DNA from: Burkholderiaceae bacterium
GTDB taxonomy: Bacteria > Pseudomonadota > Gammaproteobacteria > Burkholderiales > Burkholderiaceae_C
Direction: 5' to 3'
NCBI GenBank assembly: GCA_017992055.1
Contig: JAGOPK010000001.1
Location: forward strand, 62,001-126,000
Length of the DNA: 64,000 nt
Positions 22,553 to 31,368 of this stretch are shown in pieces. Numbering within the stretch: position 1 is the stretch's first letter; every line of letters starts with the position of its first letter. The translations under genes and the position numbers were made by a program. The notes under the pieces were generated by a model, which saw only the letters and a program-made list of their open reading frames with translations, searched no databases and was not told where the DNA came from.

Positions 22553-22576
22553 GCCTAGGGGCCCAGCGGCTCAGGG
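22547..22576. terminator. inverted repeat spanning two convergent stops
   Basis: CCCTGAGC (22547-22554) and GCTCAGGG (22569-22576) form a perfect 8-bp inverted repeat with a 14-nt loop that contains the palindrome GGGCCC. The repeat includes the stop codons of both convergent genes. There is no T-tract on either side, so it is at best a weak bidirectional terminator or an mRNA 3'-end hairpin. Confidence 0.4.
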
Positions 22577-23251
22577 CGAGGTGCGCAGCGGGTCGCTGGT
22601 CTGGGCCGTGCTGGGCTGCTCGGGCAGGCCGGCCAGGTGCTCGGCCTCGGCCCAGCGCAGGATGTCCAGGCGCTGGCCGGTCCAGCGCAGCCGGTTGATG
22701 CCGGTGTTGGGAATGGCGCAGGTGCGCGGGCCCGACAGCGGCTGGCCGGTGACCTCGCGCCACAGCATGTCCAGCACGCCGCCATGCGCCACCACCACGA
22801 TGCGGGCGCCGGCGTGGGCCGCCACCACCGCATGCAGCGCCGCCATCACCCGCGCATGGAAGTGCAGATTGCTCTCGCCGCCGCCGGGCAGGGCGTAGTC
22901 GGCCTCATGGCGTATCCAGCGCTCCCACAGCTCGGGGTGGCGGGCGCGGATGGTCGGCACGTCCAGGCCCTCCAGCACGCCGAAGGCCTGCTCGCGCCAC
23001 AGCGGCTCGGGCAGCGGCGCCAACTCAGGGGCCCGGCCGCGCTGGGCCGTGGCAATGGCCAGGGCCGTGGTGTGGGCGCGCTGCAGGTCGCTGCTGACCA
23101 GCACGTCGATGGCCTCGTCGTGCAGGCGCTGGCCCAGGCGCTGGGCCTGCTGCAGGCCCATGGCATTCAGCGGCACATCGATCTGGCCCTGGAAGCGGTG
23201 GGCGCGGTTCCAGTCGGTTTCGCCATGGCGGATCACGATCAGCTCGGTCAT
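22571..23251 (-). CDS. histidine phosphatase family protein (phosphoglycerate-mutase-like)
   Basis: A 226-residue member of the histidine phosphatase superfamily. The catalytic RHG motif is in LIVIRHGETDWN at the N-terminus; the second histidine is in VVVAHGGVLDML. The FQGQIDVPLN segment is typical of GpmB/CobC-type enzymes, which dephosphorylate small phosphate esters. The true substrate cannot be assigned. The start at 23251 places RHG at residues 8-10; a longer frame to 23380 has no supporting similarity. It stands alone. Confidence 0.9.
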   Translation of the reverse strand: MTELIVIRHGETDWNRAHRFQGQIDVPLNAMGLQQAQRLGQRLHDEAIDVLVSSDLQRAHTTALAIATAQRGRAPELAPLPEPLWREQAFGVLEGLDVPTIRARHPELWERWIRHEADYALPGGGESNLHFHARVMAALHAVVAAHAGARIVVVAHGGVLDMLWREVTGQPLSGPRTCAIPNTGINRLRWTGQRLDILRWAEAEHLAGLPEQPSTAQTSDPLRTSP

Positions 23252-23361
23252 GGCCACATTGTCCGGTGTCGCGCTGACGACAGACGTCGCCAAGGTGCGC
23301 TCACACGCTGGCAGCCCCCTGCCACAACCCACACCCGGCCCACCGGGAGGAGACAGCGCCC

Positions 23362-24699
23362 ATGGTTCCGACCCCCGCATCCACCCGCGCCCGGCCCTGG
23401 CGCCGACACCTGCTGGGCGCCGCCTGCGCCCTGCTGCTGGCCGCTGGCCTGCCGCTGCCCGAGGCCGCGGCCCAGGGCCTGCCCATCGTGCGGCCGGAGG
23501 CGGCCGGGCTGTCGTCCGAGCGGCTCACGCGCGTCAGCGACTGGCTGCGCGCCGAGGTCGCGGCCAAGCGTGTGCCCGGCGCCGTGGTGCTGGTGCTGCG
23601 CGGCGGCAAGGTGGCCTATCTGGACGCCGTGGGCCAGCGCGACCCGGCCCGGCCCGGCGCGATGAAGGCCGACGACATCTTCCGCATCTACTCGATGACC
23701 AAGCCCATCGTCAGCCTGGCGGCGATGATGCTGGCCGAAGAAGGCAAGCTGCTGCTGGAGGCGCCGATCGCGCGCTACATCCCGGCCTTTGCCGATGTGA
23801 AGGTGGGCGTGGAGAAGACCGATGTCCAGGGCAAGCCGGTGCTGGAGCTGGTGGCGCCGCGCCGCCCGCCCACGGTGCAGGACCTGCTGCGCCACACCGC
23901 CGGCCTGACCTATGGCTTCTTCGGCAGCGGCCTGGTCAAGCAGGCCTACCAGCAAGCCAACATCTCGGCCGGCGGCGACATCACGAATGCCGAGTTCGCC
24001 GAGCGCATCGCCAGGATGCCGCTCATCGCCCAGCCCGGCGCGATGTGGGACTACAGCAATGCCACCGATGTGCTGGGCCGCGTGGTCGAGGTGGCCAGCG
24101 GCCAGAGCCTGGGCGCCTTTCTGAAGGCGCGGCTGTTCGATCCGCTGGGCATGAAGGACACCAGCTTCTACGTGCCCGAGGCCGAGCGCCAGGCGCGCAT
24201 CGCCGAGCCCTTTGCCGATGACCGCACCATCGGCGTGGGCGCGATGTTCAACGACCCGCGCGTGGTGCAGAAGATGGAGTCGGGCGGCGGCGGCCTGGTC
24301 AGCACGGCGCCCGACTACGCCCGCTTCCTGGCCATGCTGCAGGGCGGCGGCGCGCTGGACGGCCGGCGCTACATCAGCCCGGCCACGCTGGCCTACATGA
24401 GCGCCGACCACCTGGGCCCCACGGTGCAGCGCACGCCGCTGTACCTGCCGGGCCCCGGCTACGGCTTCGGCCTGGGCTTTGCGGTGCGCACCACGGCCGG
24501 CGAGGCGGCCTATCCGGCCTCGGTGGGCGAGCTGTACTGGGGCGGCGCCGGCGGCACCTACATGTGGCTGGACCCGGCCCAGGAGCTGGCCGTGGTGTTC
24601 ATGATGCAGAGCCCCAAGATGCGCGTGCCCTACCGCTCGCTGCTGCGCAACCTGGTGGCCGGCGCCGTCAACGAGCTGAAGCCGGCGGCTGGGCGCTGA
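23362..24699 (+). CDS. exported serine hydrolase (class C beta-lactamase fold)
   Basis: A 445-residue precursor with a signal peptide (HLLGAACALLLAAGLPLPEAAAQ) and the beta-lactamase/transpeptidase-like fold. The catalytic SMTK tetrad is S111-K114 and the Y-x-N motif is Y231-N233 (DYSNAT). The family covers carboxylesterases, D-aminopeptidases and true beta-lactamases; nothing here favours resistance over esterase activity. GGGAGGAGA precedes the ATG. Downstream, TGCTGCG (24721-24727) and CGCAGCA (24737-24743) form an inverted repeat that may end the transcript. Confidence 0.9.
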   Translation: MVPTPASTRARPWRRHLLGAACALLLAAGLPLPEAAAQGLPIVRPEAAGLSSERLTRVSDWLRAEVAAKRVPGAVVLVLRGGKVAYLDAVGQRDPARPGAMKADDIFRIYSMTKPIVSLAAMMLAEEGKLLLEAPIARYIPAFADVKVGVEKTDVQGKPVLELVAPRRPPTVQDLLRHTAGLTYGFFGSGLVKQAYQQANISAGGDITNAEFAERIARMPLIAQPGAMWDYSNATDVLGRVVEVASGQSLGAFLKARLFDPLGMKDTSFYVPEAERQARIAEPFADDRTIGVGAMFNDPRVVQKMESGGGGLVSTAPDYARFLAMLQGGGALDGRRYISPATLAYMSADHLGPTVQRTPLYLPGPGYGFGLGFAVRTTAGEAAYPASVGELYWGGAGGTYMWLDPAQELAVVFMMQSPKMRVPYRSLLRNLVAGAVNELKPAAGR

Positions 24700-24849
24700 G
24701 CCTGCGCCGGCCCGCGCCGTTGCTGCGGATACACCTCGCAGCAGTTCTCCCCTTCAGTTCGGGGACCGGGGCGCCGATGATGATCGTGTCGGGCGGCGAC
24801 AATCCCGGGGCTTTTCGCAGTCCCAGGGGAAGCACTCGATGAAGTGTTG

Positions 24850-24935
24850 TTCTGCAAAGGGCAAACCGCGCGAAAGCGCGGGACGCAAAGTCAACGGTCT
24901 AACGGGCCCCCAGGCTCCATGACGGCAGGACTGCC
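24850..24935 (+). ncRNA. cyclic di-GMP-I riboswitch (GEMM-I class)
   Basis: The core reads GGGCAAACC (24859-24867), a CCGCGC-GAAA-GCGCGG hairpin (24866-24881), GGACGCAAAG (24881-24890), then GTCA (24890-24893) closing with TGAC (24920-24923). The outer helix pairs TTCTGC (24850-24855) with GCAGGA (24925-24930). The GGGCAAACC...GAAA...GACGCAAAG string and the GAAA tetraloop are diagnostic of GEMM-I. GGCA-GGAC-TGCC (24924-24935) can form a hairpin that would compete with the outer helix. A strong hairpin GAAGCGC/GCGCTTC (24947-24965) without a T-tract follows. The subtilase ATG is about 120 nt further on, so the switch probably controls that gene. Confidence 0.9.
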
Positions 24936-25055
24936 AGACGCCACCCGAAGCGCCGCGTGCGCTTCGCCTTGCCAGGCGCGCCCTCGGGCTGCGCTGCGGA
25001 CATCGTCTGACGCCAGTTCCTGCCCATGGCGGGGGTCGTGCCTCAGAGGATGTCG

Positions 25056-26825
25056 ATGGTTTCCAGTCTTCCCCGCCCGCGCCGCACCGGCGCTCTGGCC
25101 GCCCGCCGGTTGCGCCTCACCGCCGCCCTGGCCGGCCTGTGCATCTCGACCGGCGCCATCGCGCAGGCACAGGACTGGGCACCCGGCCGCCTGCTGGTGA
25201 TGCCGCGTGCCGGTCTGTCCAATGCCGACTTTGGCAAGGCGCTCAAGCCCCATGGCGGCAGTGCGCGCAAGCTGGGCGCCGACAACCTGCACTTGCTGCA
25301 ACTGCCGGCCGGTGCGTCCGAAGTCGCCGTGCTGGCGCAGCTCAAGGGCCATCCCCATCTGAAGTTTGCCGAGCTGGATCGGCGTGTGCCCAGCAGCCTG
25401 GTCGCCAACGATCCCTACCTGGGCAGCCAGTGGCACCTTGGCCGCATCCAGGCGCCTGGCGCCTGGGATTCGACCCAGGGCCGCGGCGTGGTCATCGCCA
25501 TCCTCGATTCCGGGGTGCTGCCCACCCATCCCGACCTGGTCCAGGTGGCCGGCTGGAACATGGTGGACAACAACGCCAACACCGCCGATGTCTACGGCCA
25601 TGGCACGGCGGTGGCCGGCTCGGCCGCCGCCCTCACCAACAACGGCAGCGGCGTGGCCGGCGTGGCCGGTGCGGCCAGCATCATGCCGATCCGTGTGTCC
25701 GACAGCACCGGCTATGCCTACTACAGCACCATCGCCAGCGGCCTGACCTGGGCCGCCGACCGCGGCGCCCGCGTCGCCAACGCCAGCTTCAGCGGCGTCT
25801 ACTCCAGCTCCGCGGTGCAGAGCGCGGCGCAGTACTTCCGCAGCAAGGGCGGCCTGGTGGTGGTGTCGGCCGGCAACTCCGGCAGCAACGACGGCGCACC
25901 GGCCGTCGCCTCGATGATCCCGGTGTCGGCCACCGACAGCGGCGACCTGCGGGCCAGCTGGTCCAGCTACGGCAGCTATGTCGCGGTGGCCGCACCGGGC
26001 GTGGGCATCTGGACCACCTCGTCGGATGGCAGCTATCGCGCGGCCTCCGGCACCTCGTTCTCGGCGCCGGTCACCGCCGGCGTGCTGGCGCTGATGATGG
26101 CTGCCAACCCGGCCCTGAGCCCGGCCCAGGTCGAGAGCCTGCTGTACTCGACCGCCGTCGACCTGGGCACGGCCGGCCGCGACATCTACTACGGCCATGG
26201 CCGCATCGATGCCTTGGCCGCGGTGGCCGCGGCCAAGGCGGCGGTCGCCGTGGACAGCGTGGCGCCGACGGTGGCCATCACCTCGCCGCTGGGCGGCGGC
26301 ACGCTGGTCGGCATCGCGACCATCGACGTGCAGGCCAGCGACAACGTGGGCGTGACCCGTGTCGACCTGAAGGTCAACGGCAAGGTCGTGGCGTCCGACA
26401 GCGCCGCGCCCTACCAGTTCGCGTGGGACTCGGCGACCCTGGTCAACGGCGGCGCCACCCTGGTGGCCGATGCCTATGACGCCGCCGGCAATCGGGCCTC
26501 GTCCGCCAGCGTCGGTGTCAACGTGTCCAACACATCGCTGGTCGCCGATGCCACCGCACCGTTGGTGGCCATCACCAAGCCCGCCAACAACAGCAAGGTC
26601 TCGGGCACGGTGGCGGTCGCGGTCAGCGCCAGCGACAACCTGGGCGCGACGGGTCTGAGCCAGTCCCTCTACCTTGATGATGTGCTGGTGGCCAGCGGCG
26701 CCGGCGGCAGCCTGTCGTACAACTGGAATACGCGCAAGGCGGCCAGCGGCACGCACATCCTGAAGGCCGTGGCACGCGATGCCGCCGGCAATGTGTCGAC
26801 CAGCCTGATCACCGTCAGCAAGTAG
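25056..26825 (+). CDS. secreted subtilisin-like serine protease with C-terminal Ig-like repeats
   Basis: A 589-residue S8 peptidase. Order: signal peptide (about 1-38, ending AIAQAQ), an inhibitor-like propeptide (about 40-115), the catalytic domain with D151 (AILDSGV), H182 (YGHGTAVAG), oxyanion N274 (SAGNSGS) and S334 (GTSFSAPV), then two bacterial Ig-like (Big_7-type) repeats from about residue 405 (APTVAITSPL; APLVAITKPA). The repeats suggest attachment to polymers or the cell surface. The ATG at 25056 has AGAGG with 6-nt spacing; ATGs at 25026 and 25050 are less well placed. It is preceded by a c-di-GMP riboswitch, which ties its expression to the motile/sessile switch. Confidence 0.93.
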   Translation: MVSSLPRPRRTGALAARRLRLTAALAGLCISTGAIAQAQDWAPGRLLVMPRAGLSNADFGKALKPHGGSARKLGADNLHLLQLPAGASEVAVLAQLKGHPHLKFAELDRRVPSSLVANDPYLGSQWHLGRIQAPGAWDSTQGRGVVIAILDSGVLPTHPDLVQVAGWNMVDNNANTADVYGHGTAVAGSAAALTNNGSGVAGVAGAASIMPIRVSDSTGYAYYSTIASGLTWAADRGARVANASFSGVYSSSAVQSAAQYFRSKGGLVVVSAGNSGSNDGAPAVASMIPVSATDSGDLRASWSSYGSYVAVAAPGVGIWTTSSDGSYRAASGTSFSAPVTAGVLALMMAANPALSPAQVESLLYSTAVDLGTAGRDIYYGHGRIDALAAVAAAKAAVAVDSVAPTVAITSPLGGGTLVGIATIDVQASDNVGVTRVDLKVNGKVVASDSAAPYQFAWDSATLVNGGATLVADAYDAAGNRASSASVGVNVSNTSLVADATAPLVAITKPANNSKVSGTVAVAVSASDNLGATGLSQSLYLDDVLVASGAGGSLSYNWNTRKAASGTHILKAVARDAAGNVSTSLITVSK

Positions 26826-26902: not shown

Positions 26903-27598
26903 TCAGGCCTGCGGACGCCGGCGGCGCATCACCGCGCCCAAGCCCAGCAGCGCCAGGCCGGTCAGCGCGATCGAGCCGGGCTCGGGCACCTCGTTGGAGC
27001 CACCGCCACCGCCGCCACCACCGCAGCCCGGCGTGCCGCTGATGCAGCCGGCGAACTCATACGACTCGCCGGAGTTGCCGACCGACTGGAACTTCACGCC
27101 ATAGGGGCTGGTGAAGGTGACACCATTGGTCAGGAAGTTGCCGGTGGTGCTCAACGTCAGCTGGAAGCTGGACAAGCCACCTTCGACCATGCCGTCACTG
27201 ACATCACCGCCGGTGCATCCGTTGGAGGCATACACACAGAGATCCACCTTCTGGAAGGTGGGCAGGGTCTCGTTCAGCACCGAATCCCAGCTTGCCGAGT
27301 TGTCGCTGACGCCGCTGAGTTCCGGCGACACCACGTCGATGCCCATGGACATCAGCACGTTCTGGCCCGGACCGGACGAATTGTTGGTGATCGTGACGTT
27401 GAAGACGGCGGTATTGGCCGTGATGGAGGTCAGCGTGAAGCCGGCCGAAGCATCCAGCGTCGCACCATCCCACAGGGTCTTGAACAGCAGCGAGCCGCTG
27501 TTGCCGGCGGACGAGAAGGTCAGGCTCGCGGCCTGGGCCGACCCCGCCAGCAGGCCCAGCGCCAGCGCCAATCCACCCAACCTCGTCATCGTGCGCAC
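26903..27598 (-). CDS. PEP-CTERM surface protein
   Basis: A 231-residue exported protein (signal RLGGLALALGLLAGSAQAA). The C-terminal sorting signal comprises VPEPGS, a hydrophobic helix (ALTGLALLGLGAVM) and an RRRR basic tail, as recognised and cleaved by exosortase. The middle is a Ser/Thr/Gly-rich beta-type domain with two cysteine pairs, and a polyglycine run (CGGGGGGGGS) sits just before the sorting motif. Such proteins are usually carried to the surface or exopolysaccharide matrix. The GTG start at 27598 has GGGAG 6 nt upstream; ATG 27589 is too far from it. No exosortase gene is in the window. Confidence 0.88.
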   Translation of the reverse strand: MRTMTRLGGLALALGLLAGSAQAASLTFSSAGNSGSLLFKTLWDGATLDASAGFTLTSITANTAVFNVTITNNSSGPGQNVLMSMGIDVVSPELSGVSDNSASWDSVLNETLPTFQKVDLCVYASNGCTGGDVSDGMVEGGLSSFQLTLSTTGNFLTNGVTFTSPYGVKFQSVGNSGESYEFAGCISGTPGCGGGGGGGGSNEVPEPGSIALTGLALLGLGAVMRRRRPQA

Positions 27599-27867
27599 GG
27601 CAATCTCCCAACAATCACAGATTCAACCAGACCGAAAGCAGGATTCGCGCCGAAGCCGAAAAATCCAGACATGACAACGGATTGGCGGTGATCGCCGGCG
27701 ATTCTCAACCGCGCGCCGCTGGCTGCGTGTCAGAAATTCCGACGCCGTTTACAGCCGGCTCGCCAAGCCCCGCCGGACCGACGGGCTGATATACGCTCGG
27801 GCGATGGCTCGCCACCCGGCCAGTTCAGAAAGGCCCGGACGGTGCATGCCTTGCTGCTGGAGGTTGG
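27599..27867. other. divergent intergenic region, no clear element
   Basis: This 269-bp gap separates the divergent PEP-CTERM and TPR lipoprotein genes. It is less G+C-rich near 27615-27680. GATATACG (27787-27794) is a possible -10 for the rightward gene, but no matching -35 is evident. I looked for a sigma-54 site of the kind used by PrsR-controlled PEP-CTERM genes and did not find a convincing one. Confidence 0.4.
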
Positions 27868-30800
27868 GTGTCCCATTGCCGTCGGATTCTGAACATGCTG
27901 CTCATACTCGCCCTGGCGGCTCTGGGTGGCTGCGGTGAACGACCTGCCGACGCCGATGCCGATGCGGTCAGGGCCGCGCGGCCCACACCGGCCGCTGCCG
28001 GCCCGGCGGCCAGCGCCGTGGCCGCGGCCAAGCGGGCGGTGGATGCGGACCCGGAGTCGGCCCCGGCCCGCCTGCAACTGGGTTCTGCCCTACTGGCCAA
28101 CGGCGACGCCGCGGCGGCCGAGATCGAGCTGAACCGGGCCCGGTCGCTGGGCCAGCCGGCCGACGATGTGTTGCCGCCGTTGGCCGAGGCCTTGCTGGCG
28201 CAGCGCAAGTTCGACCTTCTGCTGGGCGCTTTTGCGCAGCAGCTGCCGAGCCGGCCCGAGGCGAAGGCTAGCATGCTGCGGCACCTGGCCGAGGCCCAGG
28301 CCATGCGCGGCGATCGCGCTGCCGCGCGCCAGTTGCTGGCGCGTGCGCTCGAGGCCCAGCCTCGCCACCTGGGGGCCCGCTTGCTCGAGGCTCGTCTGAG
28401 CGCCGCCGACGGCCAGCCGCAGCAAGCCCTGGAGCGCCTGGAGGTGCTGCTGACCGAGGCCGCTGACCAACCCGACCTCTGGCTGCTCAAGGCCGAGGTG
28501 CTGGCGCTGCTGCGTGCCCCTGAGGCGCCGCGCAAAGAAGCGCTGGAACAGGCGCTGGCGCTGCGGCCCGACATGGCCGCGGCACATGCCGGGCTGATCT
28601 CGCTGGCCCTGCAGCGCGGTGACGTGGCTGGCGCCCAGGCCCGACACGGCAGGCTGGCCAAGGTCCTGCCCCAGCACTCCACGACGCTGTACTTCGAGGC
28701 GGTGCTGGCCGAGCAGACCGGTGACGGCGCCCGTGCGCGTGGCCTGGCCCAGGAGCTGGTGCGTCGCCTGCCCAACGACACCGCGGTGCTGATGCTGGCG
28801 GGGCGGGCGGCCATGAATGCCGGCACCTACGGCCAGGCCGCGGCGCTGCTGAACCGGGCCACCCAGCTGGCCCCGGGGGATGCCGGACCCAGACGCTTGC
28901 TGGCCGAGGCCTCGCTGCGCACCGGCTGGCCGGACAAGGCCCTGGAGGCGCTGCGACCGTTCACCGGTGCCGAGGCGCGTGATGCCGAGGCGTTGCTGCT
29001 GGCCAGTCGTGCCCTGCGCCTGAAGGGCGATGCGGCAGGGGCCACGGCCCTGGCCCGCCGGGCCCTGGCCCTGCGTCCCGACGATGTGGTGCTGCGTCTG
29101 GCCGTCGGCCTGTGGCTCAGCGGTCGTGTGCGCGAGGCGACGACGGTTGATCCGCTGGAGCCGTCCAATGCCGACCCGACGACCGGCGGCCTGCCGGCGC
29201 TGGTCCGCCTGCAGATCGCGGCGCGTGACCTGGGCGGTGCACAGCGTCTGCTGGACCGGCTTGGCAGCGAGCGTGCCGATGCCCCCGTCATGCTGGAGTT
29301 GCGCGCCCGCCTGGCCCTGGCCCAAGGAGACCGCCCGGCAGCCCGGGCCCTGCTGGAGCGGGTCCAGCCGTCTCCATCCTCACCGCCGCACGGGGCCGTG
29401 CCCTATGCGGTGGTGGCCCTGCTGGCCCGGCTGGACCTGGACGACAAGCGGCCCGATGCGGCGCTGGCCCGGCTCGATGCCCACCTGCTGCGCGTGCCCC
29501 GCCACCTCGAGGCCAGGCTGGCCAAGGCCGTCGTACTGCAGCGCACCGCTGCCGACCCGGCCCAGGTCCTGGCCGTGTTGGGCGAAGCCGTGCGTCAGCA
29601 TCCGTACGATCCCAAGGCCCATCTGGCGCTGATCGACGCACTGGACGGCGCACGCCGCTGGGAGGCCATGCTGGTCGCCGCCCAGGCCGCCACCAGCGCC
29701 GTGCCCGACCATGTGGACTTGATGGACCGTCTGGCCCGTGCGCAGCTGGCCCGCCATGAGCTGCTGCAGGCCGAGTCCTCGTTCAAGCGGCTGGCCGCGC
29801 TGATGGATGGGCGTGCCTATCCCTATGTGCGCCTGGCCGAGGTGCAGCTGATGCGCGCCCAGGTCGATAGCGCGCGCGCCAGCCTGCGCCAGGCGCGCCT
29901 GTTCGAGCCCGACGACGTGGACGCACTGCGTGCCTCGGTGGCGATGGCGCTGCGCGACGGCCGCAACGCCGAGGCGCTGGAGCTGGCGAAGGAGGCCCGC
30001 AGGCGCTGGCCCGGGCTGGTGCTGGCGCCCCTGCTCGATGCCGACATTGCCGCCGCCTCGCAGCAATGGGCCCAGGCTGCGCAGGCCTACCGCGAGGCGC
30101 TGGCGCTGCAGCCGGCGTCGGCCGAGATCACGCAACGCCTGCACGATGCGCTGCGGGCGGCTGGCCAGGCCGAGGCCGCGGCCAGGCTGTTGGCCGCCTG
30201 GCAGGGCGCCCATCCCGGCGACACCGTGCTGCTGCAGCACCTGGCCTCGGCCAGCCTGGCGCGACAGGACTGGGCCACGGCCGAGGCCCGTTACCGCCAG
30301 CTGCTGGCCCAGCTGCCCGATGACGTGCTGGTGCTGAACAACCTGGCGGTGGCCCTGGCGCGCCAGCACAAGCCCGAAGCGGTGGCGGTGGCCGAACGGG
30401 CGCTGGCACGTGCGCCCAACGAGCCCCAGGTGATGGATACGCTGGCCATGGCCCATGCAGAGCAGGCCCAGTGGGCGCGGGCCATCGAACTGCAGCGCCG
30501 CGCCGCGGCGCTGTCGCCACTGGATCGTGGCCTGCTGCTGAACCTGGCCACGCTGCAGTTCCGCGCCGGCGACCTCGACGCGGCCCGCGAGTCCTTTGTG
30601 CTGCTGACCCGCATCGGCCTGGGCACCCCGCTGGGCGCCGATGCCGAGAAGCTGCGCCAGCAGCTGGGCCTGCCGGCTGGCAGCGTGCTGCTTGGCAACG
30701 AGGCCTGGCAGGCCTCGTCGCCCGGCCGGCCCAGCGTGTCCGTGCCCGTGGCCGACACCGCCGCGCAGCCTGCACCAAGCCGACGTGAGCTTGTCGAGGC

Positions 30801-31368
30801 CGTGCTCTGGGGGGCCGTGGCCCTGCTGGGCCTGGGCTTGGGAGCGCTGTTGCTGCACGTCGCCAGCCGGCCGCCCTTTGTGCACGTAGAGCGGCGCATC
30901 GGCCTCGCCGTGGCGCCGGAGGCTGTGCGCGCCTGGCTGGAGGATCTGCGCCGGTGGGAGCCGTGGAGCGGTCTGCCGGCCTTTGCGGCTGGCGCCACGC
31001 GACGCTATGAGCCGGCGGCGCCATCACCGGCCATGCGCTGTCGCTGGCAAGGGCCGGACGGCCGTGCCGGTGGCACGCTGGAGCTGCTGCCGGCGCCGGA
31101 GCCCGGCCATGTGCTGGTGGAGAGCCTGCTGGCCGGGGCGGACGGCGAGCGCCAGCTGTGGAGCTTTGTGCCCGCCGCGGCACCCGACGGCGGCACCCTG
31201 CTGGCCTGGAGCGTGCACGAGCCAGCCGATTTTGGACGCCGTCTGCGGCATCTGCTGCTGCGTCACGAGCGTCGCATCGCCGCCCATCTGCAGGCCGATC
31301 TGGCACGACTGAAGGGCCGGGCCGAGGCCGGCGCTGTCAACGAGGCGCCGCCGCCGGCCGGGCGCTGA
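27868..31368 (+). CDS. PrsT-like TPR lipoprotein fused to a TM-SRPBCC module
   Basis: An 1166-residue protein. It starts with a lipoprotein signal (LILALAALGGC, C22), followed by about 900 residues of tetratricopeptide-like helical repeats rich in A, L and R, similar to the TPR lipoprotein PrsT of PEP-CTERM/exopolysaccharide systems. Near residues 977-998 is a clear transmembrane helix (AVLWGAVALLGLGLGALLL). From about 1004 to 1152 an SRPBCC (START/polyketide-cyclase-like) domain follows, beginning VHVERRIGLAVAPEAVRAWL and with RRWEPWSG. PrsT alone normally ends with the TPRs, so the tail is an unusual fusion. The GTG start (27868) has GGAGG 4 nt upstream and gives a basic n-region; ATG 27895 would not. 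Confidence 0.85.
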   Translation: MSHCRRILNMLLILALAALGGCGERPADADADAVRAARPTPAAAGPAASAVAAAKRAVDADPESAPARLQLGSALLANGDAAAAEIELNRARSLGQPADDVLPPLAEALLAQRKFDLLLGAFAQQLPSRPEAKASMLRHLAEAQAMRGDRAAARQLLARALEAQPRHLGARLLEARLSAADGQPQQALERLEVLLTEAADQPDLWLLKAEVLALLRAPEAPRKEALEQALALRPDMAAAHAGLISLALQRGDVAGAQARHGRLAKVLPQHSTTLYFEAVLAEQTGDGARARGLAQELVRRLPNDTAVLMLAGRAAMNAGTYGQAAALLNRATQLAPGDAGPRRLLAEASLRTGWPDKALEALRPFTGAEARDAEALLLASRALRLKGDAAGATALARRALALRPDDVVLRLAVGLWLSGRVREATTVDPLEPSNADPTTGGLPALVRLQIAARDLGGAQRLLDRLGSERADAPVMLELRARLALAQGDRPAARALLERVQPSPSSPPHGAVPYAVVALLARLDLDDKRPDAALARLDAHLLRVPRHLEARLAKAVVLQRTAADPAQVLAVLGEAVRQHPYDPKAHLALIDALDGARRWEAMLVAAQAATSAVPDHVDLMDRLARAQLARHELLQAESSFKRLAALMDGRAYPYVRLAEVQLMRAQVDSARASLRQARLFEPDDVDALRASVAMALRDGRNAEALELAKEARRRWPGLVLAPLLDADIAAASQQWAQAAQAYREALALQPASAEITQRLHDALRAAGQAEAAARLLAAWQGAHPGDTVLLQHLASASLARQDWATAEARYRQLLAQLPDDVLVLNNLAVALARQHKPEAVAVAERALARAPNEPQVMDTLAMAHAEQAQWARAIELQRRAAALSPLDRGLLLNLATLQFRAGDLDAARESFVLLTRIGLGTPLGADAEKLRQQLGLPAGSVLLGNEAWQASSPGRPSVSVPVADTAAQPAPSRRELVEAVLWGAVALLGLGLGALLLHVASRPPFVHVERRIGLAVAPEAVRAWLEDLRRWEPWSGLPAFAAGATRRYEPAAPSPAMRCRWQGPDGRAGGTLELLPAPEPGHVLVESLLAGADGERQLWSFVPAAAPDGGTLLAWSVHEPADFGRRLRHLLLRHERRIAAHLQADLARLKGRAEAGAVNEAPPPAGR

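What the first reader, a model, noticed from the sequence alone, without database searches (positions are those of the whole stretch)
24850..26825. Cyclic di-GMP-I riboswitch controlling a secreted subtilase
The leader at 24850-24935 contains the GEMM-I core (GGGCAAACC, a GAAA-capped hairpin, GACGCAAAG) and all helices can be drawn. An overlapping hairpin (24924-24935) would exclude the outer helix, giving a simple on/off platform, and a second hairpin (24947-24965) follows. GEMM-I switches are known to control motility, adhesion and exoenzyme genes; here the target is a protease with Ig-like repeats, next to PEP-CTERM and TPR surface-export genes. This suggests that c-di-GMP sets release or turnover of matrix proteins.
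Basis: partly seen in the sequence, partly recalled or inferred. Interest (0 to 1): 0.75.

Follow-up and report, generated by a model that had tools for sequence, protein, structure and literature searches.

The report
c-di-GMP riboswitch before secreted subtilase
An RNA sensor for the bacterial signal c-di-GMP sits in front of a gene for a secreted protein-cutting enzyme and appears built so that high signal shuts the enzyme off, an arrangement that recurs in related bacteria.

Summary
The aptamer is real: 24850-24938 matches Rfam c-di-GMP-I over its whole length (70 bits, cut-off 35), the only one found in this genome. Behind it lies a secreted S8 subtilase, probably starting at ATG 25056. 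The linkage recurs: such aptamers precede 10 of the 13 closest subtilase relatives in named genomes, mostly betaproteobacteria, with repeated losses; 42 of 125 aptamers surveyed precede an S8 subtilase. The better-conserved competitor is long-range: the aptamer's 3' strand pairs with 25006-25029, an element overlapping an arm that can hide the ribosome-binding site. Forcing the bound aptamer raises that site's opening cost by over 1 kcal/mol in 21 of 24 leaders and 5 of 7 further ones, beyond shuffled controls overall. I infer a co-transcriptional, translational OFF switch: protease made at low c-di-GMP, the logic of C. difficile ZmpI/PPEP-1 with another protease and no terminator. The PEP-CTERM neighbours are absent beside the subtilase in 8 of 8 relatives examined. 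Ligand binding and regulation were not measured.

The parts
24850..24938 (+). c-di-GMP-I (GEMM-I) riboswitch aptamer
   Evidence: RF01051, 70 bits, full length; only one found in the genome
24851..24854 (+). P1 5' strand UCUG, pairs with CAGA 24935-24938
   Evidence: pairs listed; pairing kept with changed letters in relatives, e.g. CUCUG/CAGGG in G018 and CCUG/CAGG in G087 (sequences)
24866..24881 (+). P2 stem with GAAA loop 24872-24875
   Evidence: alignment
24889..24932 (+). P3 helix (outer pairs 24889-24892 with 24929-24932)
   Evidence: alignment
24917..24938 (+). aptamer 3' strand that can instead pair with 25006-25029
   Evidence: minimum-energy fold of the RNA ending before the ribosome-binding site; that fold also pairs 24905-24911 with 25031-25037
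25006..25029 (+). anti-aptamer element (core UCUGACGCCAGUUCCUGCC)
   Evidence: shares bases with the anti-SD element in 18 of 24 leaders; own partner better than swapped partners, 8 of 20000 permutations as good
24999..25013 (+). anti-SD arm, pairs with 25040-25054
   Evidence: SD:UTR own partner better than swapped partners, 0 of 20000 permutations as good
25045..25050 (+). Shine-Dalgarno sequence AGAGGA, inside the sequestering helix strand 25040-25054
   Evidence: read from the sequence
25056..26825 (+). secreted S8 subtilase (589 aa) with Ig-like domains; S8 domain at residues 142-382
   Evidence: Pfam PF00082 2.7e-44, PF17957 2.9e-29; nearest solved chain thermitase 1thm; signal sequence judged by eye

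Best explanation
A c-di-GMP-I riboswitch in the 5' leader of a secreted subtilase gene works as a translational OFF switch. With little c-di-GMP, the 3' strand of the aptamer pairs, while the RNA is still being made, with an element about 70 bases downstream (25006-25029); this traps the arm that would otherwise hide the ribosome-binding site, so the protease is made. With much c-di-GMP, the aptamer closes (P1 and P3 form), the downstream arm is set free and pairs with the AGAGGA ribosome-binding site, and translation stops. Shown here: the aptamer, its gene, the recurring linkage, and more complementarity than chance for both competing helices over the set of leaders. Inferred: ligand binding, direction, co-transcriptional timing, and the protease's role (secreted when cells leave the sessile state, perhaps trimming surface or matrix proteins).
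For: Full-length RF01051 match. Linkage: aptamer upstream in 10 of the 13 closest relatives in named genomes, 5 of 7 subtilases in the genus, 10 of 28 places in the family, 9 of 14 further places in the order; 25 of 49 tree rows, clustered more than shuffled labels (12 changes against a mean of 16.6, 5 of 500 shuffles as low). Platform: bound-minus-free SD opening energy above 1 kcal/mol in 21 of 24 leaders, mean z 2.9 against shuffled UTRs; window +5.65, reached by 6 of 1000 shuffles, or +7.20 with P3 alone, reached by 0 of 1000. Other riboswitch leaders as control, P3 alone: 13 of 13 of this clade, 18 of 28 other S8, 22 of 77 non-S8 above 1 kcal/mol, p 1.3e-6 (clade against non-S8); with P1 and P3: 12 of 13, 19 of 28, 37 of 77, p 2.2e-4. 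Swap test. Shared bases of the two elements in 18 of 24. Seven leaders not used to find the rule: 5 of 7 shift by more than 1 kcal/mol. No terminator-like site. GGDEF proteins are many in the genome (44 matches).
Against: In the full-length window RNA the ribosome-binding site is predicted paired in both states (P unpaired about 0.02 at most of its positions), so equilibrium folding alone gives no ON state; kinetic trapping must be assumed. Three of 24 leaders (Nitrosomonas, gamma MAG, G007) and 2 of 7 new ones (L252, L257) show no shift, and in four more of the 24 (Pvio1, Nitrotoga, RBC049, G192) 5 to 12 of 60 shuffles do as well. 37 of 77 non-S8 leaders also pass 1 kcal/mol when P1 is forced. 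A U-rich tail follows the anti-aptamer element in 6 of 24 leaders, which would suit a terminator in those. 18 of 28 family relatives lack the aptamer, and the Nitrosomonas one only just passes the cut-off (36.2 bits). Tertiary contacts and ligand energy were not modelled; leaders share ancestry; shared base composition may help the swap test.
Confidence: 0.68

Rival explanations
1. ON switch at transcription: without ligand the long-range helix (aptamer 3' strand with 25006-25029) ends transcription; ligand prevents it and the protease is made at high c-di-GMP.
For: A U-rich stretch follows the anti-aptamer element in 6 of 24 related leaders.
Against: No such stretch after the element and no terminator-like site in the window; it does not explain why the UTR is complementary to the ribosome-binding site beyond chance.
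Confidence: 0.1
2. OFF switch through Rho: the ligand-bound leader exposes a Rho site, or loss of translation lets Rho end the transcript.
For: GC-rich leader without a terminator-like site; translational repression often brings Rho termination (general knowledge).
Against: Not tested; the SD complementarity explains repression without it.
Confidence: 0.12
3. The aptamer binds but the leader no longer regulates, or the RNA is a relic.
For: Many relatives lack the aptamer; a review reports 11 functional of 16 c-di-GMP riboswitches in C. difficile (PMC6366702, passage).
Against: Complete aptamer with intact core; platform complementarity kept in this leader.
Confidence: 0.07
4. The ligand is another cyclic dinucleotide, e.g. 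3',3'-cGAMP.
For: A G20A form of this riboswitch class binds cGAMP (PMC7288161, passage).
Against: The base that I map to G20 (24860) is G; of the 12 contact bases listed in that passage 11 are the same here (A in place of C17). The mapping is mine and rests on recalled V. cholerae numbering.
Confidence: 0.03

Closest known systems
Rfam RF01051 c-di-GMP-I riboswitch (GEMM-I); clan sister RF03167 c-di-GMP-I-GGC
   Same: Full-length covariance match, core bases and stems. Five relatives of this subtilase carry the GGC sister aptamer in the same place: L127, L130, L135, L248, L259.
   Different: Nothing in the aptamer itself; the target gene and the platform are what is less usual.
C. difficile zmpI / PPEP-1 with class I c-di-GMP riboswitch
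   Same: A class I c-di-GMP riboswitch in front of a secreted protease, negative control by c-di-GMP (reported there, predicted here) (PMC6366702 and PMC6447587, passages).
   Different: There a zinc metalloprotease, OFF by transcription termination, in a Gram-positive with known adhesin substrates. Here a serine subtilase, no terminator found, SD sequestration predicted, Gram-negative, substrate unknown.
LapD/LapG periplasmic proteolysis
   Same: Low c-di-GMP lets a protease outside the cytoplasm act on surface adhesins (abstract starts in the listing).
   Different: LapG is held by a c-di-GMP receptor protein; here control would be at synthesis, through RNA. LapD and LapG were not sought in this genome.
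Thermitase/subtilisin-type S8 proteases
   Same: S8 catalytic domain; best solved relative 1thm, E 1.3e-53.
   Different: C-terminal Ig-like domains; c-di-GMP leader.

Membership tests
RF01051 c-di-GMP-I riboswitch | Covariance-model score above the curated cut-off over the whole model | tested here: met
   70 bits vs 35, model 1-87/87
RF01051 c-di-GMP-I riboswitch | Ligand-contact bases, G at position 20 (c-di-GMP type rather than cGAMP type) | tested here: met
   11 of the 12 bases listed in PMC7288161 (passage) identical by my own mapping; 24860 is G
RF01051 c-di-GMP-I riboswitch | Binds c-di-GMP | not testable with these tools
   needs in-line probing or ITC
RF01051 c-di-GMP-I riboswitch | Lies in the 5' leader of a gene on the same strand, with an expression platform | tested here: met
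   117 nt between aptamer and ATG 25056; competing helices predicted; no transcript start was mapped
ZmpI/PPEP-1-type control | Class I aptamer in the leader of a secreted protease | tested here: met
   signal sequence judged by eye
ZmpI/PPEP-1-type control | Intrinsic terminator as platform | tested here: not met
   0 terminator-like sites in 24650-25100
ZmpI/PPEP-1-type control | Zinc metalloprotease of the PPEP family | tested here: not met
   Peptidase S8
ZmpI/PPEP-1-type control | Surface-protein substrate regulated in the opposite sense by c-di-GMP | not tested
   only one c-di-GMP-I aptamer found in the genome; class II was not searched genome-wide
Peptidase S8 | Asp-His-Ser triad | tested here: met
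   D151, H182, S334 (and N274) invariant in the alignment of 11 sequences; their roles assigned from general knowledge

The most novel reading that the evidence does not exclude
Betaproteobacteria hold an old c-di-GMP-I 'protease regulon': riboswitches in front of secreted subtilases, kept since before the split of Nitrosomonas-like and Burkholderia-like lineages, which shut protease translation at high c-di-GMP by freeing an arm that hides the ribosome-binding site. It would be a Gram-negative, translation-level counterpart, arisen independently, of the C. difficile ZmpI switch, and would make secreted proteolysis a general low-c-di-GMP trait of these bacteria.
Probability: 0.45. Interest if true: 0.65.

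Novelty: new member of a known kind. Interest (0 to 1): 0.5.

Why it matters
[quoted passage not shown] A recurring riboswitch-protease pair with a predicted direction gives a directly testable case of c-di-GMP setting extracellular proteolysis through RNA alone, and would be a further, independent instance of the 'protease off when sessile' logic known from C. difficile and from LapD/LapG.

Tried and rejected
It is not excluded for the window itself. Intrinsic terminator: none found in the window. The second hairpin (24947-24965) lies between the two arms of the long-range pairing; relatives have unlike hairpins there, and I found no role for it.

PEP-CTERM tie: the PEP-cistern gene (26903-27598 -) and PrsT (27868-31368 +) were sought by tblastn (E up to 1e-10) in 15.8-19.4 kb around the subtilase in 8 genomes (6 with the aptamer, 2 without); 0 of 8 had either. 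The gene 22571-23380 - (phosphoglycerate-mutase-like by eye, not scanned) lay near it in 3 of 8. So the PEP-CTERM pair looks like a local insertion.

Energy tests: a first version covered 17 of 24 leaders, 7 skipped by my script; the second covers all 24 and is the one used. Start codons of the 24 leaders were chosen by hand before any energy was computed. In the survey of 125 aptamers dropped before the test were 3 without a chosen ORF (L012, L103, L115), 2 whose core my pattern missed (L079, L087), 1 overlapping (L105) and 1 duplicate copy (L074b), leaving 118; starts there were chosen by script except L030, set by hand (91 instead of 43). In one search two of the nine order-level loci with an aptamer were left out because already used (G087, G075), and the start chosen for L259 is doubtful (no signal-like sequence follows).

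The 125 aptamers are no random sample: 64 loci (best-scoring places, and all 17 genus places) and 60 fetched down the ranked family list, one place skipped (G398:C158, at a contig end); that list was itself cut off. Of the 80 loci, 20 at most were scanned for aptamers (18 of them, with L208 and L209; L129, L134 and L136 again); the other 62 were not. My first ORF survey treated all loci as plus-oriented, wrong for minus-strand hits; redone.

Paper searches: c-di-GMP + riboswitch + subtilisin gave 3 papers, + extracellular protease 17, riboswitch + subtilase + cyclic di-GMP 1, 'c-di-GMP riboswitch' + serine protease 3, + Betaproteobacteria 3, + Burkholderiales 1, GEMM-I + riboswitch + protease 7, RF01051 17. 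I saw titles and abstract starts of these, and passages of PMC6366702, PMC6447587, PMC7288161 and PMC3766115; what I saw does not name this linkage. The library lacks most subscription journals, so this is weak evidence that it is unpublished.

Full report
Observation. The window was scanned against all 4227 Rfam families; the only match at or above a gathering score is RF01051 (c-di-GMP-I) at 24850-24938 +, 70 bits against a cut-off of 35, full model length. In the whole genome (5.9 Mb, 99% complete) the same model finds this place alone, and none in 14 control genomes. By my mapping, which rests on recalled V. cholerae numbering, the base corresponding to G20 is G (24860), and 11 of the 12 ligand-contact bases listed in PMC7288161 (passage) are the same; a G20A form binds cGAMP, so the c-di-GMP type is expected. 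The genome has 44 GGDEF matches over the cut-off, two of which look like halves of one domain.

The gene. The protein read from ATG 25056 has a signal-like N-terminus (by eye), an S8 domain at residues 142-382 (Pfam, 152 bits) and Big_7 Ig-like domains. The nearest solved chain is thermitase (1thm, E 1.3e-53). The triad positions are invariant in an alignment of 11 sequences. The genome has 7 S8 matches; the single aptamer stands before one of them. ATG 25056 has AGAGGA with five bases between; ATG 25026, where the longest listed ORF starts, has no such site.

Is the linkage real? In the genus, 14 of 21 genomes have a c-di-GMP-I aptamer and 7 of 21 have a close relative of the subtilase (E up to 1e-60); 5 of these 7 have the aptamer directly upstream. 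In 399 genomes of the family there are 28 such subtilases in 25 genomes (E up to 1e-80), 10 with the aptamer and 18 without. In 300 genomes of the order there are 14 places besides the window, 9 with RF01051 or its sister RF03167 upstream; of the five without, one (L258) starts at the edge of its contig and four are of one genus. Of the 13 closest of the 80 loci returned from named genomes, 10 have one: Herminiimonas, Pseudoduganella violacea, Thiobacillus, Telluria, Nitrotoga, Massilia, Nitrosomonas (only 36.2 bits), an uncultured proteobacterium, Accumulibacter and a gamma MAG; Rubrivivax gelatinosus, a Chromatiaceae MAG and Thiohalobacter do not. Five more distant loci scanned had none on the gene's strand. 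These sets overlap in a few genomes (G087, G075). P. violacea has two subtilases in a row, each with its own aptamer; genome G315 has three copies, two with aptamers. On a tree of 49 rows the label 'aptamer' (25 rows) needs at least 12 changes (5 forced by well-supported branches; shuffled labels need 16.6 on average, 5 of 500 as few), and the Nitrosomonas/Nitrotoga/Thiobacillus rows, Accumulibacter and the five Oxalobacteraceae rows all carry it. I read this as an old linkage lost many times; repeated gain is not excluded.

From the aptamer side: of 125 aptamers (124 loci; best-scoring and genus places, not a random sample) 42 stand before an S8 subtilase: 14 of the window's clade and 28 others (two of the 42, L051 and L096, were assigned by hand, L051 because its place is subtilase L226, L096 from its likeness to L097). 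Pfam confirmed S8 in all 8 of these scanned and in all 10 scanned; the other 24 rest on phmmer or BLAST likeness or on the hand assignments. Other recurring genes are an uncharacterised lipoprotein family (27), M12-like metallopeptidases (7) and PacR-like proteins (7).

How it works. Reading 24 leaders of the window's clade side by side showed a common plan: aptamer, a variable stretch with local hairpins, an element complementary to the aptamer's 3' strand, then the Shine-Dalgarno (SD) sequence. In the window GACAUCGUCUGA (24999-25010) pairs with UCAGAGGAUGUC (25043-25054), with one G-G mismatch, and UCUGACGCCAGUUCCUGCC (25006-25025) pairs with 24921-24938, with small bulges. Among relatives the letters change while pairing stays: GACAUC/GAUGUC in the window, GACACC/GGUGUC in G020, GACGCC/GGUGUC in G053.

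Tests. (a) Duplex energies against 200 dinucleotide shuffles of the UTR: mean z -1.17 for aptamer-3':UTR and -1.28 for UTR:SD over 24 leaders; z below -1 in 14 and 15 of 24. (b) Swap test without shuffles: own partners pair better than permuted partners, 8 of 20000 permutations as good for aptamer-3':UTR, 0 of 20000 for SD:UTR; own stronger than expected in 19 and 20 of 24. Shared base composition could add to this. (c) Switch test: forcing the bound aptamer (P1 and P3) raises the SD opening energy by more than 1 kcal/mol in 21 of 24 leaders, mean z 2.9 against 60 shuffles each; 13 of 24 exceed all their shuffles; no shift in the Nitrosomonas, gamma-MAG and G007 leaders, and in Pvio1, Nitrotoga, RBC049 and G192 5 to 12 of 60 shuffles do as well. 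For the window the shift is 5.65 kcal/mol, reached by 6 of 1000 shuffles; with P3 alone 7.20, reached by 0 of 1000. (d) Control on other riboswitch leaders, P3 alone: above 1 kcal/mol in 13 of 13 of this clade, 18 of 28 other S8, 22 of 77 non-S8; p 1.3e-6 for clade against non-S8. With P1 and P3 the contrast is weaker: 12 of 13, 19 of 28, 37 of 77; p 2.2e-4. (e) Seven leaders fetched after the rule was found: 5 of 7 shift by more than 1 kcal/mol, 2 (L252, L257) do not; mean z 1.8, or 3.1 with P3 alone; the start of L259 is doubtful. (f) The anti-aptamer and anti-SD elements share bases in 18 of 24 leaders.

Direction. In RNA that ends before the SD, the aptamer's 3' strand is predicted to pair downstream (maximum P above 0.5 in 23 of 24 leaders), so without ligand the arm that could hide the SD is occupied when the SD emerges. 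With ligand the arm is free. This gives OFF at high c-di-GMP. A weakness: in the complete window RNA the SD is predicted paired in both states, so the ON state must be kinetic. The ON/terminator rival has a U-rich tail in 6 of 24 leaders for it and nothing in the window.

What is known. C. difficile zmpI (PPEP-1) has a class I c-di-GMP riboswitch, is repressed by c-di-GMP and cleaves surface adhesins; the seven functional class I switches there act by transcription termination, and the two of V. cholerae do not (PMC6366702, passages; PMC6447587, passages). LapD/LapG gives the same logic through proteins (abstract starts in the listing). So a c-di-GMP-I switch before a secreted protease is a known kind; the subtilase target, the SD-sequestering platform and the spread in betaproteobacteria did not turn up in what I saw of my searches, which cover open-access papers only. 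A survey of RNA regulons notes polysaccharide-degradation genes and many unknowns under GEMM (PMC3766115, passage).

The PEP-CTERM idea. The next gene (26903-27598 -) is a cistern-family PEP-CTERM protein and the one after (27868-31368 +) is PrsT of the XrtA system; the genome has two exosortase matches. But neither gene was found beside the subtilase in 8 other genomes examined, so proximity gives no support for a shared function. What the protease cuts is unknown.

Verdict. An ordinary, well-supported c-di-GMP-I aptamer in a recurrent setting that I did not find described; a predicted translational OFF switch with good comparative support; physiological role open.

Noticed in passing
L002, L005, L006, L023, L040-L041, L043-L050, L053, L056-L059, L062-L063, L077, L079, L083-L084, L104, L116 (downstream of the aptamers): An uncharacterised lipoprotein family is the most frequent non-protease gene behind the c-di-GMP-I aptamers surveyed (27 of 125; 26 by BLAST cluster, L005 added by eye). 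None of the seven members scanned reached a Pfam cut-off (several were cut short by the locus end).
   Followed up: partly
L027, L033-L037, L117: Aptamers before M12/reprolysin-like metallopeptidases (7 of 125; Pfam seen for L033 and L035). Five of them (L033-L037, all in the window's genus) are low-scoring (35-44 bits) and long (99-104 nt): another secreted protease type behind the same switch.
   Followed up: partly
L003, L010, L011, L013, L017, L026, L029: Aptamers before PacR-like (NF058594) proteins in seven families of the order; NCBIfam was run on three cut-short proteins, all below its cut-off.
   Followed up: no
L126 1508-1594 and 3680-3769; L074: Neighbouring subtilase copies each keep their own riboswitch (Pseudoduganella violacea; two of three copies in genome G315): the switch-gene unit seems to duplicate as a whole.
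   Followed up: partly
L139 2121-2207 -: A c-di-GMP-II-GAG aptamer lies, on the opposite strand, upstream of a distant subtilase relative in a Coriobacteriia MAG.
   Followed up: no
window 26903-31368: PEP-cistern and PrsT genes sit next to the subtilase here but were found beside it in 0 of 8 relatives: probably a local insertion.
   Followed up: yes
L224 3144-3205 -: A match to RF02278 (Betaproteobacteria toxic small RNA) near a subtilase relative that lacks the riboswitch.
   Followed up: no
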